Positions 5,623 to 31,506 of a DNA stretch of 64,000 nt are shown here, in pieces. Location: contig JAFUZJ010000030.1 of assembly GCA_017476665.1 (NCBI GenBank), forward strand, positions 1-64,000, written 5' to 3'. This stretch comes from Lachnospiraceae bacterium (lineage in GTDB: Bacteria > Bacillota > Clostridia > Lachnospirales > Lachnospiraceae). A program made the translations under genes and the position numbers. A model generated the notes under the pieces. It made no database searches. It saw nothing but the letters and a program-made list of their open reading frames with translations, and was not told where the DNA came from. Every line of letters begins with the position of its first letter. Position 1 is the first letter of the stretch.

Positions 5623-5644
5623 TGATGGACGAAGATTAAGGCGG

Positions 5645-10402: not shown

Positions 10403-10416
10403 GAGGAGAGAACAGG

Positions 10417-11070: not shown

Positions 11071-11092
11071 CAATAAGGCGTGATAAAAGCAG

Positions 11093-11138
11093 AACAGGCA
11101 GGAGCTGCATTATGCGGCTCTGCCTGTTCTTTGTTTTT
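11093..11138 (+). terminator. Rho-independent terminator after fsa
   Basis: AACAGGCA pairs with TGCCTGTT, and GAGC with GCTC, around a short loop with one bulge. The stem is followed by TTCTTTGTTTTT. It closes the formate dehydrogenase/fsa operon. Confidence 0.8.
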
Positions 11139-11171
11139 ACTGTAAGCAGTGACTTTTACTGCAAGCAGTGT

Positions 11172-11369
11172 TTACTGCATGCTCTCTTCCTGCTTCTTGA
11201 TCATACGACGAACCATCTCGCCACCGATGCTTCCTGCTTCCTTAGAAGTCAGGTCACCGTTGTAGCCGGCCTTCAGGTTTACGCCAAGCTCGGATGCAAC
11301 CTCAGTTTTAAAACGGTCCATAGCGTCCTTTGCGGAAGGGACCTCAACTCTATTGCTTCTGTTTGCCAT
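11172..11369 (-). CDS. Alpha/beta-type small acid-soluble spore protein
   Basis: 65 residues on the minus strand, preceded by GGAGGTG six bases before the ATG. The protein has the family hallmarks: the GPR-protease cleavage region KTEVASELGV near residue 21, the GGEMVRRMI C-terminal DNA-binding helix, and the glycine-containing linker YNGDLTSKEAGSIGG. These proteins coat spore DNA and protect it from UV and heat, then are degraded on germination. Expression should be forespore-specific (sigma-G), but I could not identify a convincing sigma-G promoter upstream. This gene is the strongest single sign that the host forms spores. Confidence 0.93.
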   Translation of the reverse strand: MANRSNRVEVPSAKDAMDRFKTEVASELGVNLKAGYNGDLTSKEAGSIGGEMVRRMIKKQEESMQ

Positions 11370-11409
11370 TTGAATTCACCTCCAAATACCTTTTGCTTTT
11401 CAGCTTCTA

Positions 11410-11492
11410 TTTTCAAGACAAACAATGCTTGCTTATCTTGAAAACAGAAACTGTTTCAATCTAAGACAATGCATCATTTATCTTGGTCTTAG
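11410..11492. repeat. Two small inverted repeats between spore protein and tig
   Basis: TTTTCAAGA (11410-11418) and its exact complement TCTTGAAAA (11436-11444) form one potential hairpin. CTAAGAC (11461-11467) and GTCTTAG (11486-11492) form another. They sit in the 315-base gap between the divergently transcribed spore protein and trigger factor genes. Neither has a T-run typical of a terminator. They may be operator sites or leader structure for the spore gene; function unknown. The rest of the gap holds the tig promoter and no convincing gene. Confidence 0.4.
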
Positions 11493-11554
11493 TATGAGCA
11501 GTGCTTTGGATTTTATGAAAAAAATACGTTGGAAAGTTTTAACAAATATAGTGC

Positions 11555-11583
11555 TTGCAAACCAACGCCAAATTTGCTATAAT
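11555..11583 (+). promoter_or_regulatory. Sigma-A promoter of tig
   Basis: -35 TTGCAA (11555-11560), 17-base spacer, perfect -10 TATAAT (11578-11583). The predicted start at about 11590 gives a leader of roughly 95 bases to the tig ATG. Confidence 0.8.
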
Positions 11584-11684
11584 TCTAAAATGACTGTGAC
11601 TATGTGCTATGTTCACAGGTAGATGGGACTATGTGAAAAAGGAAGACAGAAGACCGTCACAGGTATGAAGGAGGAAATAGAGCA

Positions 11685-13109
11685 ATGAGTGTACAGGTAG
11701 AAAAGCTGGACAAAGGTATGGCAAGGCTCACTATTGAGGTGGATGCGGAGAGATTTGAGAAGGCAGTTGAGGCTGCTTATCAGAAGAACAAGAACAGGAT
11801 TTCCGTACCCGGCTTCCGCAAGGGTAAGGCGCCCCGCAAGATGATCGAGCAGATGTATGGAAAGACTGTATTTTATGAAGACGCAGCAAATGATCTGATT
11901 CCGCAGGCGTACGAGGAGGCCTATGACGAGAGCGGTGAAGACATCGTATCTTCTCCCAAGATCGTCGTAACCCAGCTTGAGGCCGGTAAGCCTTTCATTT
12001 TTACGGCTGATGTTGCATTGAAGCCGGAGGTGAAGCTTGGCAAATATAAGGGCGTGAAGGTCGATGCAGCGGATCTCACCGTGACCGATGAGGAAGTTGA
12101 CGCAGAGATCAAGAGAGAGCAGGAGTCCAATGCGCGTATCATTAACATTGAAGACAGAGCAGTAAAGGACGGAGATCTGACTGTACTGGATTTCGAGGGA
12201 TTCATTGACGGTGTTGCTTTTGAGGGCGGCAAGGGCGAGAATCATTCCCTGACCATTGGTTCCGGTCAGTTTATTCCCGGATTTGAAGAGGGATTGATCG
12301 GTGCTGAGCTGAATAAGGAAGTGGACGTAAATGTGACTTTTCCTGAGGATTATCAGGCGAAAGAGCTTGCAGGCAAGGCTGCTGTATTCAAATGTACCGT
12401 AAAGGAGATCAAGGAAAAGCAGCTTCCTGATCTGGATGATGAGTTTGCAAGCGAGGTATCCGAGTTTGATACCATGGATGAGTATAAGGAAGATGTAAAG
12501 AAGAAGCTGGGCGAGAGAAAGGCAGAGGCAGCAAAGGAAGCAAAAGAGGCAGCTGTGATCGAGACGATCATTGCAGAGGCTGAGATGGAGATTCCTGATG
12601 CAATGGTTGAGACCCAGCAGAGACAGATGGTAGATGAGTTCGCACAGAGAATTCAGGCACAGGGCATGTCTATGGAGCAGTACATGCAGTTCACCGGTAT
12701 GACCATGGCTACCATGATGGATCAGGTGAAAGTGCAGGCTATGCAGAGGATCGAGTCCCGTCTGGTGATGGAGGCGGTTGCCAAGGCTGAAAAGTTCGAG
12801 GTTTCCGATGAGGAGTTTGAAGCGGAGATCAAGGTGATGGGTGAGGCTTATCAGCTTGAGCCTGAAAAGGTGAAAGAGCTTCTTGGCGAGAGCGGTGCAA
12901 AGCAGGTGAAGGAAGACCTTTGCATTAAGAAAGCGGTAGAGTTCGTTGTGGAGAACGCAAAGGAGAGCAAGCCTGCCAAGTCCAGAGCAAAGAAGGCAGA
13001 TAAGGATTCTGAGAAGGACGAGAAGGCTGAAAAACCGGAAAAGACTGAGAAACCCAAGCGGACCAAGAAAGCTGACAAGGCAGAAAAAGAAGAATCTGCA
13101 GAAGAGTAA
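11685..13109 (+). CDS. tig: Trigger factor, ribosome-associated chaperone and prolyl isomerase
   Basis: 474 residues, slightly longer than the usual 430. The N-terminal ribosome-binding domain contains VPGFRKGKAPRKMIEQMYG (the GFRxGKxP signature). The FKBP-type isomerase domain at about residues 150-245 contains VLDFEGFIDG and FIPGFEEGLIGA. A long helical C-terminal chaperone domain follows. The final 45 residues form a highly charged Lys/Glu extension (KSRAKKADKDSEKDEKAE and onward) that is not part of the core fold and explains the extra length. It binds nascent chains at the ribosome exit tunnel. Start ATG 11685 after AGGAGG; own promoter and terminator. Its place just before clpP-clpX is the common bacterial order. 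Confidence 0.97.
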   Translation: MSVQVEKLDKGMARLTIEVDAERFEKAVEAAYQKNKNRISVPGFRKGKAPRKMIEQMYGKTVFYEDAANDLIPQAYEEAYDESGEDIVSSPKIVVTQLEAGKPFIFTADVALKPEVKLGKYKGVKVDAADLTVTDEEVDAEIKREQESNARIINIEDRAVKDGDLTVLDFEGFIDGVAFEGGKGENHSLTIGSGQFIPGFEEGLIGAELNKEVDVNVTFPEDYQAKELAGKAAVFKCTVKEIKEKQLPDLDDEFASEVSEFDTMDEYKEDVKKKLGERKAEAAKEAKEAAVIETIIAEAEMEIPDAMVETQQRQMVDEFAQRIQAQGMSMEQYMQFTGMTMATMMDQVKVQAMQRIESRLVMEAVAKAEKFEVSDEEFEAEIKVMGEAYQLEPEKVKELLGESGAKQVKEDLCIKKAVEFVVENAKESKPAKSRAKKADKDSEKDEKAEKPEKTEKPKRTKKADKAEKEESAEE

Positions 13110-13145
13110 GGTGATCGGCAAGAATACCGGAATCATGTAAGATAA

Positions 13146-13190
13146 CAATAGTTGTACTCAATATTTGGGTACAACTATTGTATATTTTAT
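13146..13190 (+). terminator. Terminator-like hairpin after tig
   Basis: A perfect 12-base stem, CAATAGTTGTAC (13146-13157) with GTACAACTATTG (13169-13180), followed by the AT-rich TATATTTTAT. It separates tig from clpP, which has its own promoter. Confidence 0.75.
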
Positions 13191-13236
13191 GAAAATCTTA
13201 AGCTCTTAACTTTTTATTAAATTCCGTTTGTCTCCA

Positions 13237-13264
13237 TTGAAAAATTTGGAAATTTGTATACAAT
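13237..13264 (+). promoter_or_regulatory. Sigma-A promoter of the clpP operon
   Basis: -35 TTGAAA (13237-13242), 16-base spacer, -10 TACAAT (13259-13264). The transcript would start near 13271, about 45 bases before the clpP ATG. I see no CtsR-type tandem heptad repeat (GGTCAAA). Confidence 0.65.
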
Positions 13265-13315
13265 GGGATAAGATGGTAAAAATTGTAAAATGGATTGAGA
13301 ACAGGAGGAATTACT

Positions 13316-13915
13316 ATGGCTTTAATACCTTACGTCATCGAGCAGACCAGCAAAGGTGAGCGTTCTTACGATATTTATTCCAGACTTTTAAAAGACAGGA
13401 TCATTATCCTCGGTGAAGAAGTGAATGAGACCACGGCCGGCATTATTGTAGCGGAGCTGCTTTTCCTGGAGGCAGAAGATCCTGAGAAGGATATTCATCT
13501 TTATATCAACAGCCCCGGCGGAAGTGTCACTGCAGGTATGGCGATCTATGATACCATGCAGTATATCAAGTGCGACGTCTCCACGGTTTGTATCGGTATG
13601 GCTGCAAGCATGGGTGCATTCCTTCTGGCAGGCGGTGCAAAGGGCAAGCGTTATGCGCTTCCCAACGCAGAGATCATGATCCATCAGCCGCTTGGCGGAA
13701 CACAGGGACAGGCAACCGAGATTGAGATTGCAGCAAAGCACATCCTGCGTACGAAAGAGAAGTTGAACCGTATTCTTTCGGAGAATACCGGCAGAGATTA
13801 CGAGCAGATCTGTGCTGACACGGAGCGTGACAACTGGAAGACCGCTGAGGAAGCGAAAGAATATGGTCTGGTGGATAAGGTGATCACTTTCCATACAGCG
13901 CAGGAAGAGAAATAA
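13316..13915 (+). CDS. clpP: ClpP, proteolytic subunit of ClpXP
   Basis: 199 residues, typical for the family, started at ATG 13316 eight bases after AGGAGG (an upstream in-frame start at 13295 would overlap this ribosome binding site). The serine protease triad is visible: Ser in [14 protein letters not shown], His in MIHQPLGG, and the Asp in the [15 protein letters not shown] region. It forms a tetradecameric barrel that degrades unfolded substrates fed by ClpX. Followed by clpX after 24 bases in the same operon. Confidence 0.97.
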
Positions 13916-13939
13916 AATAACTGCGGACAGGAGTAAACA

Positions 13940-15187
13940 ATGGCAGGAAAAAATATTGACAACAGCATCAGATGTTCCTTTTGCAATAAGGCACAGGGAC
14001 AGGTGCGCAAGCTGATCGCGGGTCCCGCGGGCGTATATATCTGTGATGAATGTATTGATATTTGCGCGGATATCCTGGAGGAAGAACTGGAGGACGAGGA
14101 AGACGATGAGGCGCTGCACACAGAGATCAACGTGCTGAAACCGAAAGAAATCAAGAGCTTTCTGGATGAGTATGTGATCGGTCAGGAGGCGGCAAAGCGT
14201 GCACTTTCCGTGGCAGTATATAATCATTACAAAAGGGTGACTGCGCCGAAAGATCTGGATGATGTGGAACTGCAGAAGAGCAATATCATTATGGTGGGTC
14301 CTACCGGTTCCGGAAAGACTTATCTGGCACAGACGCTGGCCAAGATCATCAATGTTCCGTTTGCAATCGCAGATGCAACGACTCTGACGGAAGCCGGATA
14401 TGTGGGGGAGGATGTGGAAAATATTCTGCTAAAGCTCATTCAGGCGGCGGATTATGATGTAGACCGTGCACAGTACGGTATTATTTATATCGATGAGATC
14501 GATAAGATCACCAAGAAGGGGGAGAATGTCTCCATTACCAGAGATGTGTCCGGTGAGGGCGTTCAGCAGGCACTCTTAAAGATCATTGAGGGTACGGTGG
14601 CCAGTGTTCCGCCCCAGGGAGGCAGAAAGCATCCCCATCAGGAGCTGATCCAGATCGATACGTCCAACATTCTCTTTATTTGCGGCGGTGCATTTGACGG
14701 ATTGGATAAGATCATCGAGACCAGATTAGACAGAAAGTCCATCGGTTTTAACACGGAGCTTACAACTAAAGTACAGAAGGAGACGGATGCCATTCTCAAA
14801 GAGGTGACGACGCAGGATCTGGTAAAATTCGGTCTGATCCCTGAGTTTGTAGGTCGTGTACCCATCTGTGTGTCCCTGGAGGGCCTGGATAAGGAAGCGC
14901 TTGTGCGTATCCTGAAAGAGCCCAAGAATGCCCTGATCAAGCAGTATCAGAAACTGTTTGATATGGATGACGTGGAGCTCGAATTCGAAGATGACGCCAT
15001 CGAGGCGATTGCGGAACAGGCATTTGAGAAGAAGACAGGTGCCAGAGGTCTTCGCTCTATCATGGAAAATATCATGATGGATATCATGTATGAGATTCCG
15101 TCAGATGACAGCATAGAGACCTGTATTATCACAAAGGAGGCTGTGGATGGCGGTCAACCTACCACGATCCGCAGAAAGCCCGCATGA
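13940..15187 (+). CDS. clpX: ClpX, ATP-dependent unfoldase of ClpXP
   Basis: 415 residues. The N-terminal zinc-binding domain has CSFCNKAQ and CDECIDIC. The AAA+ module has Walker A GPTGSGKT, Walker B IIYIDEID, and the pore loop within [15 protein letters not shown]. The [24 protein letters not shown] sensor region and the [12 protein letters not shown]-like loop area are also present. It recognises tagged proteins and threads them into ClpP. It overlaps engB by ATGA, giving the operon clpP-clpX-engB. No lon gene is present between clpX and engB, where some Clostridia carry one. Confidence 0.97.
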
Positions 15188-15789
15188 TCATTCGGAATGT
15201 AAATTTGGAAACTGTATGTGGTATCACCAGTAAATTGCCCGAGAATGTCCACCCTGAGGTGGCGTTCGCGGGCAAAAGTAACGTGGGGAAATCTTCCCTG
15301 ATCAATGCGCTGATGAATCGCAAATCTCTGGCGCGTACCAGCGCACAGCCCGGCAAGACGCAGACCATTAATTTTTACAATATCAATGATGAATTGTATT
15401 TTGTGGATCTTCCCGGATACGGGTATGCCAAGGCAAATGAGAAAGTCAAAGCGCAGTGGGGGAAAATGATCGAGGATTATTTATACAGATCCAGGAAACT
15501 CAGACAGGTGTTTCTGCTGATCGATATCCGCCATGAGCCGGGGAAAAATGATATTCTGATGTATGACTGGATCAAAAAACACGGATATGAGCCGATCATC
15601 ATAGCGACCAAACTGGATAAGATCAACAGGAGTCAGATTGAAAAACAGGTAAAGCTGATACGGACGACACTGAAAGCGGGCAAAGATACGGTTATTGTAC
15701 CGTTTTCAGCGGAAACCAAACAGGGCAGGGATACGATTTATGAGATTCTGGATTCTGTTTTGACGTCGGAAGGCGGGGAAGTCGATTGA
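15184..15789 (+). CDS. engB: EngB/YsxC ribosome-biogenesis GTPase
   Basis: 201 residues. G1 motif [13 protein letters not shown]3 DLPGYGYAK, and G4 ATKLDK are all present, and the spacing matches the EngB (YihA/YsxC) group of TRAFAC GTPases. In Bacillus this GTPase acts in assembly of the large ribosomal subunit and is essential. ATGA overlap with clpX and TTGA overlap with the next gene show tight translational coupling. Confidence 0.95.
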
Positions 15790-16952
15790 AAAAATATTGG
15801 AAAGCTTTAACAAATCTTGCGGTTACGCTGATCACATGTCTTCTGGTGATTTTTTTGGTTCCCAGACTGCTTGTGTTTTTTGCGCCTTTTGTTGCCGGGT
15901 GGATCGTGGCATGGATTGCCAGTCCGCTCGTTCGTTTTTTTGAGACAAAATTAAAGATCAGGCGGAAAGCGGGAAGTGCGGTGGTGATCGTGCTGGTGAT
16001 CGCGTTGGTGGTGCTGGTACTTTATCTGCTGGGCAGCAAACTGGTGAAGGAGGGAGTGGGGCTGATCGGTGCGCTGCCTCAGATCTGGACCAGTACAGAG
16101 CGGGATCTGGATGCGATCGCGCAAAAGATGAATATTCTGTACACGAAGCTGCCTCGGGATCTGCAGGTGCGCTTTACGGATGCCGGCAATGAGATAACCA
16201 CTTATTTGGGTAATTTTGTGGGAAACGTCAGTGTGCCCACAATTGAAGCGGTTGGGAATATTGCAAAACAGGTTCCGAATGTGTTGATCGGGATCATCAT
16301 GGCGCTGCTGTCAGCTTATTTGTTTGTGGCGGAACATGATCGGATCCTTGCGTGGTTTGCGAGAGTGACGCCGAGGAGTATTCAGGACAAATACAGGATC
16401 GTACGCCGCAGTCTGGTAAAAGCGGTGGGCGGATATTTCAAAGCGCAGTTCAGGATTGAGTTATGGATGTATCTGTTGCTGGTGATCGGACTGAGTGTTT
16501 TACATATTGATTACGCGCTGCTGATCGCTCTTGGAATTGCGATTTTGGACTTTATCCCGTTATTTGGCACAGGCACGGTTCTGGTGCCTTGGGCGGTGAT
16601 CAAATTCCTGAGCTCCGATTATACGTTGGCCATTGGACTGTTGGTTATCTGGGGCGTGGGGCAGTTGGTCCGGCAATTGATCCAGCCCAGGATCGTGGGA
16701 GAATCCGTGGGTATTGCGCCGATTCCGACACTTTTCTTACTGTATGTGGGATATCGTCTGGGGAGTGTGGTCGGAATGATCCTGGCGGTTCCAATCGGAT
16801 TGATCCTGTTTGGCATGTATGAGGAAGGAGTATTTGATACCACCAAGAACAGTGTGAAGATCCTGGTGAACGGTGTGAACCGTTTTCGCAGACTGGATCA
16901 GGAGGATCTGCGGGGCGTAGATTCGGATGGAGGAAAGGAGCCGCATGCGTAA
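15786..16952 (+). CDS. AI-2E family (YtvI-like) membrane protein
   Basis: 388 residues with an N-terminal pair of membrane segments (LAVTLITCLLVIFLVP and neighbours), a basic loop, a third segment, a central soluble stretch, and a C-terminal cluster of four to five hydrophobic segments including LLLVIGLSVLHIDYALLIAL and a PLFGTG motif typical of the AI-2E/YdiK/YtvI family. In Bacillus the YtvI member is linked to sporulation; other members are Na+/H+ antiporters or putative exporters. TTG is the likely start because it overlaps the engB stop (TTGA) and follows GGCGGGGAAG; no ATG lies close. The spore protein gene nearby agrees with a sporulation role but does not prove it. Confidence 0.8.
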   Translation: MKKYWKALTNLAVTLITCLLVIFLVPRLLVFFAPFVAGWIVAWIASPLVRFFETKLKIRRKAGSAVVIVLVIALVVLVLYLLGSKLVKEGVGLIGALPQIWTSTERDLDAIAQKMNILYTKLPRDLQVRFTDAGNEITTYLGNFVGNVSVPTIEAVGNIAKQVPNVLIGIIMALLSAYLFVAEHDRILAWFARVTPRSIQDKYRIVRRSLVKAVGGYFKAQFRIELWMYLLLVIGLSVLHIDYALLIALGIAILDFIPLFGTGTVLVPWAVIKFLSSDYTLAIGLLVIWGVGQLVRQLIQPRIVGESVGIAPIPTLFLLYVGYRLGSVVGMILAVPIGLILFGMYEEGVFDTTKNSVKILVNGVNRFRRLDQEDLRGVDSDGGKEPHA

Positions 16953-17685
16953 TATCAGACTCTTGTTACAATATGAAGGCACAAGATATCAGGGATGGCA
17001 GCGCCAGCAGTCTACCGATCATACGATCCAGGGAAAGCTGGAAACGCTTTTATCGAAAATGTGCAAGGAAACGATTGAGATTCAGGGAAGCGGAAGAACG
17101 GACGCGGGAGTACACGCGTTGGGACAGGTGGCAAATTTTCACACCAACTCGGAAATGACGGTAGAGGAGATGCAGACGTATATGAATACTTATCTGCCGG
17201 AGGACATCGCGGTGCTTCAGGTCGCGGAAGCGGGGTCACGGTTTCACAGTCGTCTGAATGCCAGCGGAAAGCATTATATCTATCGCGTCATAAACAGCGG
17301 GATACCGGATGTTTTCCTGCGAAGATATGCGATCCGGGTGCCGGAGAAGCTGGATCTGGACGCCATGCGAAAGGCGGCGTCTTATCTGTGCGGAGAGCAC
17401 GATTTTAAAAGCTTTACGTCTGCCAAAAAAGGAAAAAAATCCACGGTCCGCAGGATTGATTCCATTGAGATCATCCAGGAGGATGCACTGCTTACCTTTT
17501 CTTTTCAGGGGAACGGTTTTTTGCATCATATGATCCGAATCCTGATGGGAACGCTGCTGGAAGTGGGAAAAGGGGAACGGAGTCCGGAGAGTATTCCGGA
17601 ATTGTTGGATGCGAAAAACAGGGAATTGGCAGGCCCATTGATGCCCGCCAAGGGTTTGACGCTGGTGGAGATCTTTTTTTCATAG
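16945..17685 (+). CDS. truA: tRNA pseudouridine synthase A
   Basis: 246 residues from ATG 16945, which follows AGGAAAGGAG; an in-frame ATG at 16927 would place the ribosome binding site inside the gene. The catalytic motif GRTDAGVHALGQVANF carries the conserved Asp. TruA converts U38-U40 in the anticodon stem of many tRNAs to pseudouridine. Overlaps the preceding membrane protein gene by 8 bases and ends the clpP operon, before a strong terminator. Confidence 0.95.
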   Translation: MRNIRLLLQYEGTRYQGWQRQQSTDHTIQGKLETLLSKMCKETIEIQGSGRTDAGVHALGQVANFHTNSEMTVEEMQTYMNTYLPEDIAVLQVAEAGSRFHSRLNASGKHYIYRVINSGIPDVFLRRYAIRVPEKLDLDAMRKAASYLCGEHDFKSFTSAKKGKKSTVRRIDSIEIIQEDALLTFSFQGNGFLHHMIRILMGTLLEVGKGERSPESIPELLDAKNRELAGPLMPAKGLTLVEIFFS

Positions 17686-24560: not shown

Positions 24561-24581
24561 AGATTGGCGGGAGATGTGGAA

Positions 24582-27356
24582 ATGAAGGAGCGGTATCATA
24601 TTTCAGGGATGACCTGCTCAGCCTGTTCTTCCCATGTGGAGAAGGCGGCAAGTAAACTGGACGGGGTGGAAAAGGCATCCGTCAATCTGTTGACGGAAAC
24701 CATGGATATCACCTATGACGAGAATCTATTGCGGGAAGCGGACATTGTGCAGGCGGTGGTGAAGGCCGGATACGGCGCGGAAAAAATGAGCGGAGGGGCG
24801 TCCGGCGGAGCAGCCGACAGTGGTGCAACCTGCGGACAGACAAACAACAGCGTCAGGAAAAACGCGGCATCGGGCAGGGAGGAGCTATTGCGCAAAGCGC
24901 ATGATGAGAGCAGAGCCATGAAGCGGCGGTTGGGAATATCCATCGGATTTCTGATCCCGCTCATGTATGTGTCCATGCACCATATGATTCATGAATGGAC
25001 GGGAATTCCCGTACCGGCGTTTGTGACGGATTATCTGCACGGCAACGAAAACGCCATGATCTTTGCCATGACGCAGTTTTTGCTGGTGCTGCCCATCTTA
25101 TATATGAATCGGAAATTTTTTACAGTGGGTTTTCGGACCCTTGCCCATCTGTCGCCGAATATGGACAGTCTGATCGCAGTGGGAGCTTCCGCGTCCATGG
25201 GATACGGCATCTTTGCCATGTATCGGATCGCCTATGGACTGGGGCATGGCGCTATGAATGTGGTGGAGCATTATGCTCATGACCTGTATTTTGAGTCGGC
25301 GGGCATGATCCTAACATTGATCACAGTGGGAAAATATCTGGAGAGTCGTTCCAAGGGCAAGACCAGTGAGGCCATCACGAAGCTGATGGACCTTTCGCCC
25401 AAGACGGCAATCCGCCTGAAGGCGGACGGCACAGAGGAGGAAGTGCCTACGGAAGCATTGGCGGCGGGAGATGTTTTCCTGGTGAAGCCGGGGAGCCTGA
25501 TCCCTGTGGACGGTGTCGTGCTGGAGGGCAATTCCAGTGTGGATGAAGCTGCGATCACGGGGGAGAGCGTTCCCGTGGAGAAGCAGACGGGAGACAAAGT
25601 GGTTTCCGCGACCATGAATAAAGCAGGTTTCTTAAAATGCCTTGCCGAGCGCGTGGGGGATGACACGACTCTGGCACAGATCATCCGCCTGGTGGAGGAG
25701 GCTTCGGGAAGCAAAGCACCGATTGCACAGCTTGCGGACAAAGTGGCAGGCGTGTTTGTGCCTGTGGTCATGGGAATTTCCCTCATGACACTGATCGGCT
25801 GGCTGATTGCCGGGGCGGATGCGGAGTTTGCCATCTCCACTGCTATCGCGGTGCTGGTGATCTCCTGTCCCTGTGCGTTGGGACTGGCTACACCTGTAGC
25901 AATCATGGTAGGCACAGGTGTGGGAGCAAACCACGGTATTCTCATCAAATCCGGTGAAGCGCTGCAGACGGCACGGGATGTGGATACGGTGGTGCTGGAT
26001 AAGACAGGTACCATCACCGAAGGAAAGCTGAAAGTGATGAGTCAGGGAAGCTATGTGCCGGGTTTGAGCCTTGCGACACTTCTTGCCGTGGCAGCGGCAT
26101 TGGAACAAAAGAGTGAACATCCGCTGGCGGAAGCTGTGGTAAAAGAAGCTGAGAAACTGGGCTGCCCGAAGATTGCAGTGAATGATTTTCAGGCGGTGTT
26201 TGGCAGAGGCGTGGAAGGCGTGATCGCACAGGATGTATGCGTCGCAGATCCGGATCTGACAGACGGGCCTGTGGCGACAGTAAATTTGGATCATGCCTCC
26301 GGACAGCAAAAGATAAAGATGCCGGAGGCGCAATGTATCCGGTCAGGCAGCAAAATCTATGTGGGCAATCAGGCTTACCTGAAAGAAAAACACATAGGAA
26401 ATGCAGATTCAGAGCAGATCACACAGGCACTGAACGAGTTGGCGGATGAGGGGCAGACGCCGCTTCTGGTGGCGGATGCAAAACAGGTACTGGGCATCAT
26501 AGGAGTGGCGGATGGGGTCAGAGGCAGTTCGCTGGCGGCAATCCGGGCGTGGCACAAAATGGGAATATCCGTGGTCATGCTTACCGGGGACAATAAACGG
26601 ACGGCGGAGGCTGTGCGCAGACGGCTGGGTCTGTCACAGGTGATCGCGGAGGTGCTGCCCCAGGACAAAGAGCAGGAGATCCGAAAACTTCAGGCGGCAG
26701 GTTGTAAAGTGGCGATGGTGGGTGACGGGATCAATGACGCGCCGGCACTGGTGGCTGCAGATGTGGGAATTGCGATCGGTGCAGGGACCGATGTGGCGAT
26801 TGAGAGCGCGGATATTGTGCTGATGAAGAGTGATCTGCGGGATGCGGTGACCGCCATGCAGCTCAGTCGGGCAGTGATCCGCAATATCAAGCAGAATCTG
26901 TTCTGGGCCTTTTTCTACAATTGTATCGGAATCCCTCTGGCAGCAGGGCTTTTGTATCCGGCATTTGGACTGCGGCTGACGCCCATGTTTGGCGCGGCGG
27001 CCATGAGTATGAGCAGCATTTTTGTGGTAACCAATGCGCTGCGACTCAGGCGTTTCAGAAGTGCATTCAGGCAGACTGGACAAAAAACAGTGCCGGAGAC
27101 AGAAAAGGAAATGATAACAAATAATAACATACAAGGAGGAACAAACATGAAAAAAGTGATCACAGTGGAAGGAATGATGTGCCAGCATTGTACCGGCAGA
27201 GTGCAGAAAGCGCTGGAGGGCGTGGAAGGTGTGACGAGTGTAGCTATGAGCCTAGAGGACAAGACCGCGACCGTGGAACTTTCCGGTGATGTGGCGGATG
27301 ACGCGTTGAAGGCAGTCATTGTGGATGCCGGGTATGAAGTGACGCAGATCGCGTAA
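24582..27356 (+). CDS. copA: Cu(I)-exporting P1B-type ATPase with C-terminal CopZ domain
   Basis: 924 residues from ATG 24582 (GGGAG at 24569). Order: N-terminal heavy-metal-associated domain with GMTCSACSSHV; a linker rich in Gly/Ser; eight membrane segments including the CPC metal-transport motif (ISCPCALGLATP); actuator motif TGES; phosphorylation motif DKTGTITEG; a nucleotide domain with a ~40-residue insertion; and GDGINDAPAL. After the last membrane segment a short linker leads to a second metal-binding domain, GMMCQHCTGRV, residues 856-924. This last domain is like free CopZ chaperones and is preceded by its own ribosome binding site and ATG at 27147 in the same frame. Pumps Cu(I) out of the cell. 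Regulated by CsoR. Confidence 0.94.
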   Translation: MKERYHISGMTCSACSSHVEKAASKLDGVEKASVNLLTETMDITYDENLLREADIVQAVVKAGYGAEKMSGGASGGAADSGATCGQTNNSVRKNAASGREELLRKAHDESRAMKRRLGISIGFLIPLMYVSMHHMIHEWTGIPVPAFVTDYLHGNENAMIFAMTQFLLVLPILYMNRKFFTVGFRTLAHLSPNMDSLIAVGASASMGYGIFAMYRIAYGLGHGAMNVVEHYAHDLYFESAGMILTLITVGKYLESRSKGKTSEAITKLMDLSPKTAIRLKADGTEEEVPTEALAAGDVFLVKPGSLIPVDGVVLEGNSSVDEAAITGESVPVEKQTGDKVVSATMNKAGFLKCLAERVGDDTTLAQIIRLVEEASGSKAPIAQLADKVAGVFVPVVMGISLMTLIGWLIAGADAEFAISTAIAVLVISCPCALGLATPVAIMVGTGVGANHGILIKSGEALQTARDVDTVVLDKTGTITEGKLKVMSQGSYVPGLSLATLLAVAAALEQKSEHPLAEAVVKEAEKLGCPKIAVNDFQAVFGRGVEGVIAQDVCVADPDLTDGPVATVNLDHASGQQKIKMPEAQCIRSGSKIYVGNQAYLKEKHIGNADSEQITQALNELADEGQTPLLVADAKQVLGIIGVADGVRGSSLAAIRAWHKMGISVVMLTGDNKRTAEAVRRRLGLSQVIAEVLPQDKEQEIRKLQAAGCKVAMVGDGINDAPALVAADVGIAIGAGTDVAIESADIVLMKSDLRDAVTAMQLSRAVIRNIKQNLFWAFFYNCIGIPLAAGLLYPAFGLRLTPMFGAAAMSMSSIFVVTNALRLRRFRSAFRQTGQKTVPETEKEMITNNNIQGGTNMKKVITVEGMMCQHCTGRVQKALEGVEGVTSVAMSLEDKTATVELSGDVADDALKAVIVDAGYEVTQIA
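27147..27356 (+). other. copZ: Internal in-frame start able to make a free CopZ-like chaperone
   Basis: AAGGAGG (27133-27139) sits seven bases before ATG 27147 in frame with copA. Starting here would make a 69-residue protein, MKKVITVEGMMCQHCTGRVQ and onward, the exact size and shape of a CopZ copper chaperone. No stop codon separates it from copA, so it is also the C-terminal domain of the ATPase. The Gly-Gly-Thr in the linker is simply the translated Shine-Dalgarno sequence, which suggests an ancestral separate gene that became fused. Independent initiation is inferred. Confidence 0.6.
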
Positions 27357-27381
27357 TCACATAGGGTATAGCTTTTAGAGG

Positions 27382-27416
27382 GTAATCCGCCGGGGAGTAT
27401 TGGCGGATTACTTTTT
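27382..27416 (+). terminator. Rho-independent terminator after copA
   Basis: Perfect 10-base stem GTAATCCGCC (27382-27391) with GGCGGATTAC (27402-27411), then TTTTT. Ends the csoR-copA operon. Between it and the left inversion site are about 75 AT-rich bases with a weak extended -10 (TGGTATTAT at 27457) and no gene. Confidence 0.88.
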
Positions 27417-27491
27417 GAACAGTTTAAATTAGAATATCAAAAAGAGTATTGGTACTGGTATTATAGATCAAAGTGTGGGAATAATAGAAAA

Positions 27492-27518
27492 TGCAACATT
27501 CTGTAATAGAATGTTGCA
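27492..27518. repeat. Left inversion site
   Basis: TGCAACA (27492-27498), 13-base core, TGTTGCA (27512-27518). The outer symmetry extends to a perfect 14-base stem (27489-27502 with 27508-27521). Read on the minus strand it matches the right site at 25 of 27 positions; the two differences are near one end of the core. Short inverted arms around a small core are the usual form of a tyrosine-recombinase crossover site. Followed by T residues, it could also act as a weak terminator. Confidence 0.75.
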
Positions 27519-27536
27519 TTTTTGTCTTCATAGATA

Positions 27537-27563
27537 GTATCGGTTATTATCCAAAATACTTTA
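27537..27563 (-). promoter_or_regulatory. Sigma-D/sigma-28 type flagellar promoter inside the invertible segment
   Basis: On the minus strand TAAAGTAT-N11-ACCGATAC. This matches the sigma-28 consensus TAAAGTTT-N11-GCCGATAA at 7 of 8 and 6 of 8 positions with exactly the right spacing (equivalently TAAA-N15-NCCGATA for Bacillus sigma-D). The predicted start is near 27530, 12 bases from the left inversion site. In this orientation it reads out leftward, antisense to the end of copA. Nothing on that side is flagellar, whereas csrA and flagellin lie at the other end of the segment. Confidence 0.65.
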
Positions 27564-27658
27564 GCTTTATTTCAAAAAATCTGTGAATTCTCCAACTGAA
27601 CTAATTATATAATACTTTTGGATAAAAGGCAATGAAAATTTGATGAAAATTACACGAA

Positions 27659-28237
27659 TCATATCTTAATATTCTTATACACGTCATCCTTATCGTCTTG
27701 TTCAATGCCCAGATAGCGTTTAGTAATCTGATACGTGGAATGGTTATAAATGGTCATTAAAAGCGCTGGCGGGGTGCCCTGCTTCCAGGCATAGTATCCA
27801 AATGTTTTACGCAGGGAATGACAGCTGATATGTTTATCCATGCCGGCATATTCCGCCGCCTCTTTGATAATCCGATAGGCCTGATAGCGGCTTAGTGGAT
27901 TGCCTTGTTGCCCTCTGCTCTCAAAAATCCATGATGTTTCGGTTTGTTTGTCAAATGCTATATAGGTGTGCAAGGCATCCTGAATAGCATCATTGATATA
28001 AACTTGATTTTTCTTGCCCGTCTTTTGTTCCCGCACAGTCATGTGGGTATGAAATTTCTTTTGACTAAAATCAAATACATCTCCGCAGGTCAGGCACAGA
28101 ATATCGGAAATCCGCAAAGCAGTGTTCAATCCAATGATGATCAGTGCATAATTGCGTGGATGTGGTTTAATGGTGCGGTAATAGTTTTTGAAGTTTTTCA
28201 GTTTATCGGTATCTCTGATCGGTTGTGTAGTACTCAT
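27659..28237 (-). CDS. FimB/FimE-sized tyrosine recombinase
   Basis: 192 residues, essentially only the catalytic domain, the size of FimB/FimE and clostridial invertases rather than of phage integrases, which carry N-terminal arm-binding domains. The catalytic residues are in place: Arg in ALRISDIL, HSLRKT (His-x-x-Arg), His in IYNHSTYQITKRYLGI and the nucleophilic Tyr in KRYLGI. It is read leftward and lies wholly between the two inverted sites. A Shine-Dalgarno GGGG precedes the ATG. A possible -10 (TGTAAT, minus strand, 28276-28281) lies within the right site core with a weak -35 TTGTGT outside the segment. If this is its promoter, inversion would exchange the -35 and change recombinase expression. 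Confidence 0.9.
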   Translation of the reverse strand: MSTTQPIRDTDKLKNFKNYYRTIKPHPRNYALIIIGLNTALRISDILCLTCGDVFDFSQKKFHTHMTVREQKTGKKNQVYINDAIQDALHTYIAFDKQTETSWIFESRGQQGNPLSRYQAYRIIKEAAEYAGMDKHISCHSLRKTFGYYAWKQGTPPALLMTIYNHSTYQITKRYLGIEQDDKDDVYKNIKI

Positions 28238-28264
28238 ATCTTTTCCCCTTTTCCATTTTATTTT

Positions 28265-28291
28265 TGCAACATTCTATTACAAATTGTTGCA
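28265..28291. repeat. Right inversion site
   Basis: TGCAACA (28265-28271), 13-base core TTCTATTACAAAT, TGTTGCA (28285-28291). The 17 bases TGCAACATTCTATTACA occur in exact reverse complement at the left site (27502-27518). It lies 58 bases before the csrA ATG and 27 bases upstream of the recombinase start. Confidence 0.75.
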
Positions 28292-28349
28292 CTTAAAAAC
28301 ACAAGTGTAAATAGCAAGGAAGCTGAAAGGCGGCAAGGAGGTTGAGAAT

Positions 28350-28661
28350 ATGCTTAGACTTACAGTGAGTGCAGAGGAATATCTGATGATCGGCGATGAT
28401 ATCAAGATCGTTTTTCTGGGAGGGACGAAGAACCATCAGCGGATTATGATCGACGCGCCGAAAGATGTAAATATTGCGCGCAGCAAGGCGATGGCGAATC
28501 GGCTGGATGATCCGGAGGAGATCGCGAAGATGCCGCAGTATTACGCAGAGCCGGAGCATCCGGAGAAGTATTTTCGGGAGCAATATCTTCCCAAAGAACT
28601 TGCCGGGAAAAAGCTCAAGGGAAACATTGTCATCACCAAAGGGAATCTGGAGGAACGATAG
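28350..28661 (+). CDS. csrA: CsrA-like RNA-binding regulator with C-terminal extension
   Basis: 103 residues; usual CsrA is 60-75. The first 50 residues align with CsrA: MLRLTVSAEEYLMIGDDIKI (compare MLxLTRKxGExIxIGDxI), IDAPKDVNIARSK near residue 38 with the RNA-contacting Arg kept. The other RNA-contacting residue, Arg6 in most CsrA, is Val here. Residues 51-103 (ending KGNIVITKGNLEER) are an extension I do not recognise. In Bacillus, CsrA blocks translation of flagellin mRNA and is itself held by FliW. Here it is directly upstream of flagellin, whose leader has a CsrA-type hairpin. Shine-Dalgarno AAGGAGG at 28335. No convincing promoter lies between the right inversion site and this gene in the present orientation. 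Confidence 0.8.
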   Translation: MLRLTVSAEEYLMIGDDIKIVFLGGTKNHQRIMIDAPKDVNIARSKAMANRLDDPEEIAKMPQYYAEPEHPEKYFREQYLPKELAGKKLKGNIVITKGNLEER

Positions 28662-28736
28662 GCACCAAAATAAGGTAATAATTGTCCCGGAAACAAATGT
28701 CAAGGGCCCGACAAGAGTGGTACGGAACACTTATTA

Positions 28737-28762
28737 TAAAAAACAATTCACTCTGCCGAAAG
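28737..28762 (+). promoter_or_regulatory. Sigma-D/sigma-28 type promoter of flagellin
   Basis: TAAA (28737-28740), 14-base spacer, GCCGAAAG (28755-28762); compare TAAA-N15-GCCGATAT. The spacer is one base short of the optimum. Gives a leader of about 45 bases before the flagellin ATG. The stretch from the end of csrA to this promoter has no terminator, so read-through from csrA is possible. Confidence 0.6.
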
Positions 28763-28773
28763 GCAGCAACTGA

Positions 28774-28789
28774 CGCAAACGGATTTGCG
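28774..28789 (+). promoter_or_regulatory. CsrA-binding hairpin in flagellin leader
   Basis: CGCAAA-CGGA-TTTGCG: a perfect six-base stem presenting GGA in a four-base loop, the classic CsrA recognition shape. A second GGA is in the Shine-Dalgarno AGGAGG (28801-28806), 21 bases further on. A CsrA dimer bridging the two would cover the ribosome binding site, as in the Bacillus hag leader. Binding is inferred. Confidence 0.7.
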
Positions 28790-28813
28790 CAGGTAAAACA
28801 AGGAGGTAAAACT

Positions 28814-30106
28814 ATGGTAGTACAACACAATTTAACAGCAATGAACTCTAACAGAATGCTTGGCTTAACCGCGGCCTCACAGTCCAAATCAACTGAAAAA
28901 CTTTCTTCCGGTTACAAGATTAACCGTGCGGCGGATGACGCGGCAGGTCTGTCCATTTCCGAGAAGATGAGAAGACAGATCAGAGGTCTGACTCAGGCTT
29001 CCCTGAACGCACAGGACGGTATTTCCGCAGTGCAGACCGCAGAGGGCGCGCTGAATGAAGTGCATGACATGCTTCAGAGAATGGATGAGCTTGCAACCAA
29101 GGCTGCAAACGGTACTCTGACAGATGACGACCGTCAGGCTGTACAGAAGGAGATCGATCAGTTGGTAACCGAGATCGACCGTGTTTCTGAGACAACGACC
29201 TTTAACGAGCTTCAGCTTTTGAAGGGCGGAAAAGCAGAGGATGCGGCTGGAACAGAGGAGACAGTTGGAACAGAGGAGACAGCTGGAACAGAGGATGCGG
29301 CTGGAGCAGGTGACCCTCCTGCAACTTTAACAGCAACTGCTACCGCTAGTGACGGCTTAACAGTTGACGTTACAGAGGGTTATAATACGGCTGGGAGTTA
29401 TAAGTATTTCGCGGCAGATGCTGATGGCAGTGTAGACGGTGCAGCCCATGAGGCTGGATGGTATGCTGCGGATGTTGACTTTGAAAATGATGATGCAGAA
29501 ACGTTAGCTGCAAAGACGGGACTGCCCAGTGGAATCTCAGTAAGTGATGGTACTCCGCAGGCGAATGATACTATTACTGTCACCGCAGCAACTCCTGCTG
29601 CGGACGGCGGTGAAACAGAAGGAGCCGGTGAAACAGGAGGAACCGGTGAAACGGCAGAAACTTCCAAAGATGCTGCAGGCTCAACTGCGGCTCCGGCGTT
29701 AAAGTTCTCCCTGCATGTTGGTTCTGAGGTCGGCGATGAGAACAAGATCACTGTAGAAATCAAGGCAATGTCAGCAGCCGGAATCGGCATTGATAAGCTG
29801 AAAGGCGATGGCGTGATGACACAGGATGATGCTACAGCTGCAATCGATACCATCAAGAACGCAATCAAGGAAGTTTCCGCACAGCGTTCTGAGCTCGGTG
29901 CAGTACAGAACCGTCTGGAGCACACCATCAACAATCTGGACAACGTGGTTGAGAATACCACTGCGGCAGAGAGCCAGATCCGTGATACCGATATGGCAAC
30001 CGAGATGGTTAAGTTCTCCAACAATAACATTCTGGCTCAGGCAGGTCAGTCCATGCTGGCACAGGCCAACCAGTCCAATCAGGGTGTTCTGTCCTTGCTC
30101 GGATAA
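28814..30106 (+). CDS. fliC: Flagellin
   Basis: 430 residues from ATG 28814, seven bases after AGGAGG. The N-terminal D0/D1 region (about 1-137) is strongly conserved: MVVQHNLTAMNSNRML, LSSGYKINRAADDAAGLSIS, and LQRMDELATKAANGT, the area recognised by TLR5 in many flagellins. The C-terminal D1/D0 region (about 325-430) ends DTDMATEMVKFSNNNILAQA and QSNQGVLSLLG. Between them is a variable domain of about 185 residues, low in complexity, acidic and rich in Gly, Thr, Glu and Ala, with short repeats at both of its edges. There is no signal peptide; export is by the flagellar type III system. Regulation likely combines a sigma-D promoter, CsrA and the adjacent inversion switch. Confidence 0.97.
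   Translation: MVVQHNLTAMNSNRMLGLTAASQSKSTEKLSSGYKINRAADDAAGLSISEKMRRQIRGLTQASLNAQDGISAVQTAEGALNEVHDMLQRMDELATKAANGTLTDDDRQAVQKEIDQLVTEIDRVSETTTFNELQLLKGGKAEDAAGTEETVGTEETAGTEDAAGAGDPPATLTATATASDGLTVDVTEGYNTAGSYKYFAADADGSVDGAAHEAGWYAADVDFENDDAETLAAKTGLPSGISVSDGTPQANDTITVTAATPAADGGETEGAGETGGTGETAETSKDAAGSTAAPALKFSLHVGSEVGDENKITVEIKAMSAAGIGIDKLKGDGVMTQDDATAAIDTIKNAIKEVSAQRSELGAVQNRLEHTINNLDNVVENTTAAESQIRDTDMATEMVKFSNNNILAQAGQSMLAQANQSNQGVLSLLG
29246..29310 (+). repeat. 18-base tandem repeat in flagellin variable region
   Basis: Three copies of an 18-base unit (GCTGGAACAGAGGAGACA and close variants) and part of a fourth, encoding AGTEET, VGTEET, AGTEDA, AGAGD. Being a multiple of three, copy-number change would keep the frame. 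A second Glu/Gly/Thr-rich stretch is at about 29610-29665. Confidence 0.8.
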
Positions 30107-30309: not shown

Positions 30310-30552
30310 CATATTCAACAAAAGACGTACAAGTGAATGAGTTTTCAGTTTTCTATGGGTCAGATCGACCTTTTCCCTTATGTAAAAATATAAGTAAGCG
30401 AATGCAAGCAAAATTTACGAGCTTGCATATGAGACAGGGACAGAAATAAAGAGATGTTTTCTGAATGATCACGCAGGGTAGCCACACCCTCTGATAATTC
30501 GTCATTTTGTCTTGTGTTCTTTTGTAAAAAACATTATAATGGAGGTAGATAT

Positions 30553-31506
30553 ATGGCAAAGCAATTTATAGGCGAGGCAATCAAGAAATTTGAAGATTTG
30601 AATGTGATCGATAATTTCATGTTCAATGAGCTGGAGATGCAGGCGGATCAGGAAAAGGCGGAGCAGTTTGTCCGTATTCTTCTGGAAACGATTCTGCAGA
30701 AGAAGGTGACGGGGATCCGGATCTTTTCCCAGTTTATGGAGCAGGGGAGAACAAACTCTCTGCATGGCGTCCAGATGGATAGTTATATCGAGGCGTGTGT
30801 GGGAGAGGGAGAAGACGGGAAGACCATGATTCTTCCAATCAAACCGGAAGTGTTTGATATTGAGCCCAATACTTATGAGACGGACAGCGAAGAAAAGAGA
30901 ATGCGGTATTATAGGGCATTGATCGATACCAAGATTCTCGCTGCGGGAACCAGATATCAGGACATGAAAAATGTAACATTGATCATGATTTCGAATTATG
31001 ATCCGTTCAAGTGCGACCGTATGGTGTATACAATTGAGAATACATGCAGGGAAGAACCGAATTTAAAGTATGACGATGGTGTCAGAACGTTATTTTTGTA
31101 TGCTTATGGGCGAAAGGGTGCCGAGAACAACAGGGAGCTGGCAGATCTGCTTCGGTATATGACAGACAGCAGGCGGGAGAATGTGACCAATCCTAATATT
31201 GAATTTATTCAGGGGATGTTGGAGCAGATCAAGCGGAATGCAGAGATCGGGGTGAGGTATATGCAGAGTTGGGAGATCAGACAGAGATTTCATGATTTGG
31301 GTTATGATGAAGGCTATGACAGCGGCTATGATAGTGGCTATGACAAAGGTTATGATAAAGGTCACTGCCGGACATTAGTCGAAAGTGTAGAGAATGCGAG
31401 AGAGAATTTCCATATAGAATTGGAGGCTGCCTGTGAGGGGCTGGGGATCACTGTCGAGGAATATCAGGTAGCTAAGGAAGCATTAAAGAGCATTGAGGGA
31501 TCATGA
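30553..31506 (+). CDS. PD-(D/E)XK nuclease family (Rpn/transposase-like) protein
   Basis: 317 residues from ATG 30553, seven bases after GGAGG. It belongs to the PD-(D/E)XK group annotated as putative transposase or Rpn recombination-promoting nuclease: N-terminal NVIDNFMFNELE, then the nuclease core VQMDSYIEA with Asp, and VFDIEPN with the Asp-x-Glu pair, then a conserved YYRALIDTKILAAGTRYQDMKNV-type helix. The usual Gln after the DIE motif (DIEMQ) is Asn here. The C-terminal region carries five GYD repeats (GYDEGYDSGYDSGYDKGYDK), a known feature of these proteins in Lachnospiraceae. Family members promote RecA-independent recombination or horizontal transfer; role here unknown. No terminal repeats seen. 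Confidence 0.85.
   Translation: MAKQFIGEAIKKFEDLNVIDNFMFNELEMQADQEKAEQFVRILLETILQKKVTGIRIFSQFMEQGRTNSLHGVQMDSYIEACVGEGEDGKTMILPIKPEVFDIEPNTYETDSEEKRMRYYRALIDTKILAAGTRYQDMKNVTLIMISNYDPFKCDRMVYTIENTCREEPNLKYDDGVRTLFLYAYGRKGAENNRELADLLRYMTDSRRENVTNPNIEFIQGMLEQIKRNAEIGVRYMQSWEIRQRFHDLGYDEGYDSGYDSGYDKGYDKGHCRTLVESVENARENFHIELEAACEGLGITVEEYQVAKEALKSIEGS

What the first reader, a model, noticed from the sequence alone, without database searches (positions are those of the whole stretch)
27492..28291. Self-contained DNA inversion switch next to csrA and flagellin
Seen: two 27-base sites TGCAACA-N13-TGTTGCA, 25 of 27 identical, in inverted orientation, flanking a 192-residue tyrosine recombinase gene. 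Known: E. coli fimS and the Clostridioides difficile flg switch vary surface structures by tyrosine-recombinase inversion between short inverted repeats, and the recombinases are of this small type. Inferred: the segment inverts and alters expression of the adjacent csrA-flagellin unit. Having the recombinase inside the segment would make the switch autonomous.
Basis: partly seen in the sequence, partly recalled or inferred. Interest (0 to 1): 0.95.

Follow-up and report, generated by a model that had tools for sequence, protein, structure and literature searches.

The report
Self-flipping on/off switch for flagellin
In the genome of a likely Lachnospiraceae bacterium, a 746-base DNA segment that carries its own recombinase gene and a predicted flagellar promoter lies between two matching inverted sites with that promoter aimed away from a csrA-flagellin gene pair, so flipping the segment would likely switch this extra flagellin on; among 87 such cassettes compared across related bacteria, 86 have the predicted promoter near one site and two of these have it facing the flagellin genes.

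Summary
In detail: two 27-bp palindromic sites (25/27 identical, inverted) flank a 746-bp segment holding one 192-aa tyrosine recombinase, and they are the only exact matches to the site pattern in the 3.64-Mb assembly. In 87 unique cassettes (window included) with paired sites beside csrA-flagellin, the motif lies 36-51 nt inside one site in 86; it points away in 84 and toward the operon in 2. Those two are site-to-site inversions of sister cassettes whose adjoining flanks match directly. Paired sites share an identical 5-bp core in 87 of 87, although 52 cores occur. The distal site is also a terminator-like hairpin whose stem pairs across the recombination junction, so inversion would split it. 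Three further loci carry divergent flagellins either side of one such promoter. Best reading: a tyrosine-recombinase counterpart of the Salmonella Hin/fljBA switch, controlling an extra flagellin with its own csrA. Inversion in this strain and expression were not observed. New variant of a known kind.

The parts
27492..27518 (.). distal (left) recombination site, 11-bp perfect palindromic arms around core GTAAT
28265..28291 (.). csrA-side (right) recombination site, same core, imperfect outer arm
27519..28264 (.). predicted invertible segment (746 bp between the sites)
   Evidence: homologous segments are inverted between L059 and L068 and between L054 and L082
27538..27563 (-). predicted sigma28 promoter TAAA-N16-CCGATA, aimed away from csrA in the assembled orientation; TAAA starts 45 nt inside the distal site
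27478..27522 (-). predicted intrinsic terminator: 15-bp stem with 5-nt loop over the distal site (27488-27522) followed by a T-rich tail; modelled to be broken by inversion
27659..28237 (-). tyrosine recombinase (192 aa), predicted invertase
28350..28661 (+). csrA-like gene (103 aa), first gene of the predicted switched operon
28774..28789 (+). hairpin CGCAAA-CGGA-TTTGCG in the flagellin leader with GGA in the apical loop, predicted CsrA site, ending 24 nt before the ATG
28814..30106 (+). flagellin (430 aa), predicted target of the switch

Best explanation
This is a self-contained cassette in which a tyrosine recombinase gene and a predicted sigma28 promoter lie together between two palindromic sites, and recombination between the sites is inferred to turn the promoter toward or away from a csrA-flagellin operon. 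In the assembled (OFF) orientation the promoter points out through the distal site, where a hairpin with a U-rich tail, made half of segment DNA and half of flanking DNA, would likely stop the transcript after a few tens of nucleotides. Inversion would place the same promoter motif 130 nt upstream of csrA and pair its half-hairpin with a poorly matching flank, so the terminator would be broken and csrA-flagellin transcribed. CsrA would then probably tune translation through the GGA hairpin and the Shine-Dalgarno in the flagellin leader. Shown here: the anatomy, its recurrence, the shared cores, and flipped sister cassettes in other species. Inferred: catalysis by this recombinase, promoter and terminator activity, and switching in this strain.
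For: Only two exact sites in the assembly. R42, H140, R143, H166, Y175 invariant in 14 of 14 aligned relatives (catalytic roles recalled). In 87 unique cassettes with paired sites beside csrA/flagellin, a sigma28 motif (at most 1 mismatch) faces one site at 30-60 nt in 86, against 0 of 87 at the other segment end, 0 of 87 outside either site, and 4 of 1740 Markov controls. Orientation: 84 OFF, 2 ON, 1 without motif. Both ON cassettes match OFF sisters inverted from site to site, with the adjoining flanks direct: L068 vs L059, 72.9% over 763 bp inverted; L082 vs L054, 77.8% over 776 bp inverted. Core of 5 bp identical within 87 of 87 pairs, 52 different cores overall, 7 of 23 close cassette pairs changed core in both sites. 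No sigma28 motif in the site-to-csrA leader in the 43 cassettes of the same-genus set, and 3 isolated 1-mismatch ones in 41 csrA-flagellin gaps. Two other flagellin genes of this genome have exact sigma28 motifs 84 and 180 nt upstream of their start codons. OFF-junction hairpin stronger in 84 of 86, weaker in 1 (-20.9 vs -11.2 kcal/mol; U in 12 nt 8.1 vs 2.9). The stem extends past the site by 4 or more pairs in 78 of 86 on the distal side vs 9 of 86 on the csrA side; shuffled distal partners gave 38 on average, at most 48. Three loci have divergent flagellins either side of one such promoter.
Against: No read evidence of inversion in this strain. Only 2 of 86 cassettes are ON, so switching may be rare or strongly biased to OFF. 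The flipped comparisons are between species, on MAG contigs, and the directly matching left flank is short (24 bp beyond the site in both cases). A sigmaA-like promoter also points out of the window segment (27632-27604); such a match was found in 9 of 86 cassettes. A sigmaA promoter of csrA or flagellin outside the segment is not excluded. In the window one 1-mismatch sigma28 match (CCGAAA) lies in the csrA-flagellin gap. 9 of 102 one-sided loci showed no site pair at either search distance. In the wider family set, 11 of 29 loci show no csrA or flagellin in their short flanks.
Confidence: 0.88

Rival explanations
1. A small selfish element: a lone tyrosine integrase with terminal inverted repeats that happened to land beside csrA-flagellin.
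For: Distant relatives are phage and plasmid integrases, below 60% identity in every record found (viral contigs at most 45%). Outside the family, 0 of 13 fetched loci have csrA or flagellin in their flanks, and within the wider family set 11 of 29 do not.
Against: csrA and/or flagellin adjoin 105 of the 123 unique loci of the main sets, with the sigma28 motif inside the segment in 86 of the 87 with paired sites. The genome holds one close copy of the recombinase (the next match is 25% identical) and two exact sites.
Confidence: 0.04
2. A formerly invertible promoter now locked OFF, leaving a silent flagellin.
For: 84 of 86 cassettes are OFF; the outer half-sites differ at two positions in the window.
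Against: Cores are identical in 87 of 87 pairs and differ between relatives in both sites together; of the listed same-genus matches only one has a stop inside, and catalytic residues are kept in 14 of 14; two cassettes are flipped; csrA and flagellin frames are intact here.
Confidence: 0.06
3. The inversion mainly sets the recombinase's own expression, and flagellin uses another promoter.
For: Only 27 nt separate the recombinase start from the csrA-side site in the window, so its own promoter probably overlaps the site (promoter-like matches there).
Against: No sigma28 motif elsewhere in the leader of 43 cassettes; the motif is kept facing the site whichever way the recombinase points: 79 cassettes with both the same way, 7 opposite (from the counts).
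Confidence: 0.05

Closest known systems
Salmonella Hin/fljBA flagellar phase switch (PMC9368917, passages read)
   Same: An invertible segment with the recombinase gene and the flagellin-operon promoter between two short sites; the operon holds a flagellin plus a regulator of flagellin expression; another flagellin lies elsewhere.
   Different: Hin is a serine recombinase (recalled), this is a tyrosine recombinase; the regulator gene here is csrA, not fljA; a terminator-like hairpin spans the distal site; three relatives have flagellins on both sides of the segment.
hin plus invertible FliA promoter upstream of csrA-tldR-flagellin loci (PMC13418256, section 11 and passages read)
   Same: FliA-dependent promoter in an invertible region upstream of csrA and flagellin loci of gut commensals; CsrA was enriched on the 5' UTR of a flagellin mRNA there.
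   Different: hin lies beside an inversion of about 120 bp, with TldR; the word starts tyrosine and lachnospir do not occur in its main text. In the window no gene lies between csrA and flagellin; a TldR elsewhere was not sought.
Clostridioides difficile flg switch with RecV (PMC5903667 and PMC7446863, passages read)
   Same: Tyrosine recombinase, short inverted repeats, flagellar genes, OFF transcripts ended early.
   Different: RecV acts on several switches; the switch lies in the leader of the flgB operon; OFF termination depends on Rho, not on a predicted intrinsic hairpin.
E. coli fimS with FimB/FimE
   Same: Small tyrosine recombinases inverting a promoter (PMC5903667 section 13: 296-bp segment that contains only a promoter).
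   Different: Recombinase genes lie outside the segment (recalled); this protein scores 49.4 and 46.5 bits on the two tyrosine-type DNA invertase models against cut-offs of 221 and 222.
Providencia stuartii fimbrial inversion (PMC5903667, section 13 read)
   Same: 844-bp putative invertible segment that encloses a recombinase gene near a surface-structure locus.
   Different: Fimbriae, 14-bp imperfect repeats.
Bacillus subtilis Hag-FliW-CsrA homeostasis (PMC6529632, passages read)
   Same: CsrA acts on the flagellin leader; fliW and a second csrA are present in this genome.
   Different: No invertible promoter is described there in the passages read.

Membership tests
Tyrosine recombinase | Phage_integrase domain above cut-off | tested here: met
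   87.2 bits, cut-off 27.1
Tyrosine recombinase | conserved catalytic R, H, R, H, Y | tested here: met
   R42, H140, R143, H166, Y175 invariant in 14 of 14 aligned; roles recalled
FimB/FimE tyrosine invertases (NCBIfam PRK09870, PRK09871) | score above the curated cut-off | tested here: not met
   49.4 of 221 and 46.5 of 222 bits
Invertible promoter (inverton) | promoter between inverted repeats | tested here: met
   sigma28 motif facing one site in 86 of 87 cassettes; promoter activity itself untested
Invertible promoter (inverton) | both orientations observed | tested here: inconclusive
   2 of 86 cassettes ON, both in other species; no reads for this strain
Hin/fljBA type switch | serine recombinase (recalled) | tested here: not met
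   tyrosine recombinase
Hin/fljBA type switch | recombinase and flagellin-operon promoter both inside the segment | tested here: met
   (promoter by motif)
Hin/fljBA type switch | co-transcribed regulator that silences the other flagellin | tested here: inconclusive
   csrA precedes the flagellin; one of two other flagellins examined has a GGA hairpin in its leader, one has not
Intrinsic terminator | stable hairpin followed by U-tract | tested here: met
   15-bp stem, -17.9 kcal/mol, 8 U in 12 nt in the window; only 4 G-C pairs; the only terminator-like site in 27340-28900, but shuffles average 1.1 such sites, so the support is the recurrence in 84 of 86
Intrinsic terminator | stops transcription | not testable with these tools
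   needs a transcription assay
CsrA-controlled flagellin leader | GGA in an apical loop near the start codon | tested here: met
   window leader and 62 of 81 leaders in all, against 58 of 1620 mononucleotide shuffles
CsrA-controlled flagellin leader | CsrA binding | not testable with these tools
   needs a binding assay

The most novel reading that the evidence does not exclude
Lachnospiraceae carry a wardrobe of silent flagellins, each in its own address-coded cassette that its tyrosine recombinase flips without touching its neighbours. One inversion does three things: it aims the sigma28 promoter, breaks the terminator built across the recombination junction, and releases a CsrA that mutes a fixed flagellin by translation, so that the filament is exchanged rather than mixed. 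This would be an independently evolved Hin/fljBA system whose recombination site doubles as a terminator that exists in one orientation only.
Probability: 0.35. Interest if true: 0.9.

Novelty: new variant of a known kind. Interest (0 to 1): 0.8.

Why it matters
Flagellins of Lachnospiraceae are major gut antigens (recalled; PMC11285207 and PMC11580831 seen as search listings only). If many of them are kept OFF by inversion, then a flagellin gene in a genome does not mean flagellin on the cell, and single cells in one clone can differ in antigen and motility. It also gives a test for why some commensal flagellin genes seem to lack a promoter: PMC3720852 (passages read) found none upstream of three Eubacterium and Roseburia flagellin genes; those loci were not examined here. 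The split terminator, if it works, is a compact way to make both states tight, and the 5-bp core may be an address that keeps neighbouring cassettes apart.

Tried and rejected
Selfish-element reading: disfavoured because csrA and/or flagellin adjoin 105 of 123 unique loci. The sigmaA-like promoter at 27632-27604: a match of that kind in 9 of 86 cassettes, so not kept. A flagellin promoter of its own in the csrA-flagellin gap: 3 of 41, not conserved. Loci first scored as lacking sites: 15 of 102; a wider search found sites 1.8-2.5 kb apart in 6 of the 15 (L058, L074, second cassette of L076, L109, L118, and L173 of Roseburia faecis M72), with a sigma28 motif facing the distal site in 4 of those 6; 9 stayed without a pair. 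Phage and plasmid searches gave 173 and 2163 records, all below 60% identity. Of these I opened two unannotated human faecal 'Bacteriophage sp.' records: L289 carries recombinase, csrA and flagellin with a 33/33 site pair and the motif pointing away (OFF), and L290 recombinase and csrA at the record end without a site pair; both look like bacterial contigs and neither is in the counts. A viral contig scan gave 65 loci, one of which (L249) has a flagellin next to the recombinase but no sigma28 motif near. One search was run before loci were oriented and is superseded. No structure was predicted.

Rows dropped before counts: 23 duplicates, 18 loci without csrA or flagellin within 1.2-1.5 kb (some at contig ends), 3 two-sided loci, 15 without close sites, and 1 without motif for the energy counts. 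Of the same-genus matches, two were not fetched (G042:C4 with an internal stop, and the G102:C6 fragment). The loci were only checked for neighbours, not counted. The cassettes are related to each other, so counts are not independent trials; sites were chosen as best inverted matches, which raises within-pair identity everywhere, though not the contrast between core and outer arm.

Full report
OBSERVATION. The two 27-bp sites, their inverted orientation and 25/27 identity, and the 192-aa tyrosine recombinase between them are as described. The left site is a perfect palindrome (11-bp arms, 5-nt centre), the right one is imperfect in its outer arm. The exact site pattern occurs only at these two places in the 3.64-Mb assembly, and its backwards control nowhere. 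The genome has one close copy of this recombinase; the next match is 25% identical. The organism is placed in the Lachnospiraceae by its relatives: the nearest protein (91%) is from a Lachnospiraceae MAG, and same-genus contigs match records named Lachnospiraceae or Acetatifactor.

Between the recombinase stop and the left site, on the minus strand, lies TAAAGTATTTTGGATAATAACCGATACTA (27563 downward), an exact TAAA-N16-CCGATA sigma28 motif starting 45 nt inside the site. It points left, away from csrA (28350) and flagellin (28814), so the assembled orientation is read as OFF. As an internal yardstick, two other flagellin genes on contig C7, near fliW and a second csrA, have exact motifs of the same kind 84 and 180 nt upstream of their start codons, and no exact copy of these sites lies near them. 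I call them fixed for that reason; other kinds of switch there were not sought. The genome has two more Flagellin_N matches: a hook-associated-like protein on C7 and a 366-aa flagellin-like protein on C44 with no exact motif in the stretch read. The cassette flagellin is 43% identical to one C7 flagellin, and 76% and 64% identical to the other in its two conserved ends; that other one lacks a comparable central part.

RELATIVES. The recombinase was found in 45 of 138 same-genus genomes at E <= 1e-20 (own included), in 41 of 397 family genomes and 40 of 334 genera at E <= 1e-25, and in named genomes including Roseburia faecis, Eubacterium xylanophilum, Petralouisia muris and several Acetatifactor bins. 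From 146 recombinase hits in the loci plus the window, 123 were unique; 102 had csrA or flagellin on one side, 3 had flagellin on both sides, 18 had neither within 1.2-1.5 kb. Of the 102, 87 have paired sites within 900 bp (43 from the same-genus set, 44 from the named set). Of the other 15, 6 have pairs 1.8-2.5 kb apart and 9 none. In the separate family-wide loci, 18 of 29 show csrA or flagellin in flanks of up to about 1.5 kb and 11 do not; of 13 loci from outside the family, none does. So the flagellin association looks like a trait of this family in what was searched; one viral-collection contig of unknown origin (L249) has a more distant recombinase beside a flagellin.

PROMOTER. In 86 of 87 paired cassettes one, and only one, segment end carries a sigma28 motif facing the site at 30-60 nt (observed 36-51, median 45); the other end has it in 0 of 87, the outside of either site in 0 of 87, and Markov-resampled ends in 4 of 1740. 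The exception is L176. The leader from site to csrA has none in the 43 cassettes of the same-genus set; the csrA-flagellin gap has a 1-mismatch match in 3 of 41, one of them in the window, where it overlaps a small hairpin.

ORIENTATION. 84 cassettes have the promoter pointing away from csrA and 2 toward it. In 79 the promoter and recombinase point the same way (78 OFF, 1 ON), in 7 they are opposed (6 OFF, 1 ON), so what is biased is the promoter's direction, not the recombinase's. The two ON cassettes are L068 (G091:C53) and L082 (G059:C13). Against the OFF sister L059, L068 matches directly over the left site with 24 bp of outer flank (86.8% over 53 bp) and over the right site with its flank (76.4% over 301 bp), while the segment matches inverted, site to site (72.9% over 763 bp; the inverted match runs 17-18 bp past one site). 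L082 against L054: 93.9% over 49 bp and 80.7% over 212 bp direct, 77.8% over 776 bp inverted. Farther left the flanks differ between the species. Outer halves stay with the flanks and inner halves move with the segment, as expected for crossover in the core.

SITES. Within a pair the central 5 bp are identical in 87 of 87 and the central 7 in 82 of 87, though between cassettes each core position agrees in only 30-44% of comparisons and there are 52 different cores. Of 23 close cassette pairs (80% protein identity or more, among each query's top hits) 7 show a core change made in both sites. Cassettes that I could assign to the same genome share a core in 0 of 15 pairs, but only 64 of 3741 of all pairs do, so this has little power. 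Mismatches between sites fall in the outer half more than the inner in 66 cassettes and less in 4.

TERMINATOR. The distal site forms a hairpin whose stem runs on into both flanks, followed by a U-rich stretch. Modelling the outgoing transcript gives a mean of -20.9 kcal/mol for promoter end with distal flank, -11.2 for promoter end with csrA flank, and -12.6 and -14.3 for the other segment end with csrA and distal flank; the first is stronger than the second in 84 of 86 and weaker in 1; U content in the next 12 nt is 8.1 against 2.9. Beyond the half-site, the promoter-end flank pairs with the distal flank by 5.8 contiguous pairs on average and with the csrA flank by 1.7; shuffled distal partners give 3.5 (at most 4.0 in 500 shuffles), so base composition explains part, not all; 4 or more pairs occur in 78 of 86, 9 of 86, and 38 (at most 48) respectively. 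In both ON cassettes the two halves of this stem lie at opposite ends of the segment (10 and 9 pairs when compared). In the window: 15-bp stem, -17.9 kcal/mol against -7.3. The consensus scan lists it as the only terminator-like site in 27340-28900, though shuffles average 1.1. This is a prediction; termination was not measured.

CSRA AND LEADER. Of 81 flagellin leaders (cassettes, two C7 flagellins, two-sided loci), 62 have a hairpin with GGA in the apical loop, 35 different 5' stems, against 58 of 1620 shuffles. One of the two C7 flagellins has one, the other not. CsrA control of flagellin through the leader is known in B. subtilis (PMC6529632, passages), and CsrA was enriched on a flagellin 5' UTR in a csrA-tldR system (PMC13418256, section 11). 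Whether the cassette CsrA silences other flagellins is a guess.

TWO-FLAGELLIN LOCI. L043 (G127), L060 (G090) and L172 (E. xylanophilum ATCC 35991) have divergent flagellins on both sides of the segment and one sigma28 motif (exact in L060, 1 mismatch in the other two), aimed at one of them. Inversion there would exchange one flagellin for the other.

PRINT. Searches that combined flagellin with phase variation, Lachnospiraceae, inver and recombinase, with invertible promoter and tyrosine recombinase (36), with inverton (39), with three of four of Roseburia, invertible, Lachnospiraceae (40; 20 of 444 listed), with csrA, phase variation and invertible (64), invertible promoters with Lachnospiraceae and flagell (65), and flagellin with Roseburia, inverted repeat and recombinase (77) showed no report of this cassette in titles and abstract starts; passages were read only in the papers named here. 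The library lacks most subscription papers, and the 2019 invertible-promoter study was not held. A survey of invertons in a defined gut community does not contain the word starts flagell, motility or lachnospir in its main text, but it links an inverton group of 33 (32 from class Clostridia) to tyrosine-type recombinases (PMC11892184, passages); overlap with this cassette could not be judged. The nearest report is PMC13418256.

VERDICT. The finding is real and larger than reported: a self-contained flagellin switch spread through the family. It works like Hin/fljBA but is not a member of it, since the recombinase is of another class. Confidence 0.88 for an invertible promoter controlling csrA-flagellin, about 0.7 for the orientation-dependent terminator, about 0.35 for the full novel case with silencing of another flagellin by the cassette CsrA.

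Noticed in passing
window 24564-27356: The copper ATPase-like ORF runs in frame, without a stop, into a CopZ-like metal-binding domain that has its own strong ribosome site and ATG at 27149 (names by eye); possibly one long protein and one internal product from the same frame.
   Followed up: no
window 30541-31506: 321-aa ORF after the flagellin with no Pfam match; by eye it resembles Rpn/PD-(D/E)XK transposase-like proteins, and ORFs of similar look lie inside some enlarged segments (L058, L074, L076, L173).
   Followed up: partly
L057 (G002:C2) 3442-17407: Three recombinase-csrA-flagellin cassettes close together, with different cores (GGTAG, TGGAA, ATGGA), plus further flagellin genes in the same stretch.
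   Followed up: partly
L118, reverse-complement coordinates 4926-6035: An enlarged segment contains a 369-aa ORF that by eye resembles an amide hydrolase, between promoter and recombinase.
   Followed up: no
L249 5001-6942: IMG/VR contig with a 38%-identical recombinase directly followed by a flagellin (60% in its N-terminal part), without a sigma28 motif near: maybe a separate invention, or a bacterial contig.
   Followed up: partly
L289 4722-6432: A human faecal record filed as 'Bacteriophage sp.' holds a complete OFF cassette (recombinase, csrA, flagellin start, 33/33 sites, motif pointing away); probably a bacterial contig.
   Followed up: partly
window 29235-29324 and 29608-29657: 18-bp repeat units in the central part of the flagellin gene (families D1 and D4), which could vary in number.
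   Followed up: no
L045, L080: Loci with one clear palindromic site and no partner found; contig ends may explain part of this.
   Followed up: partly
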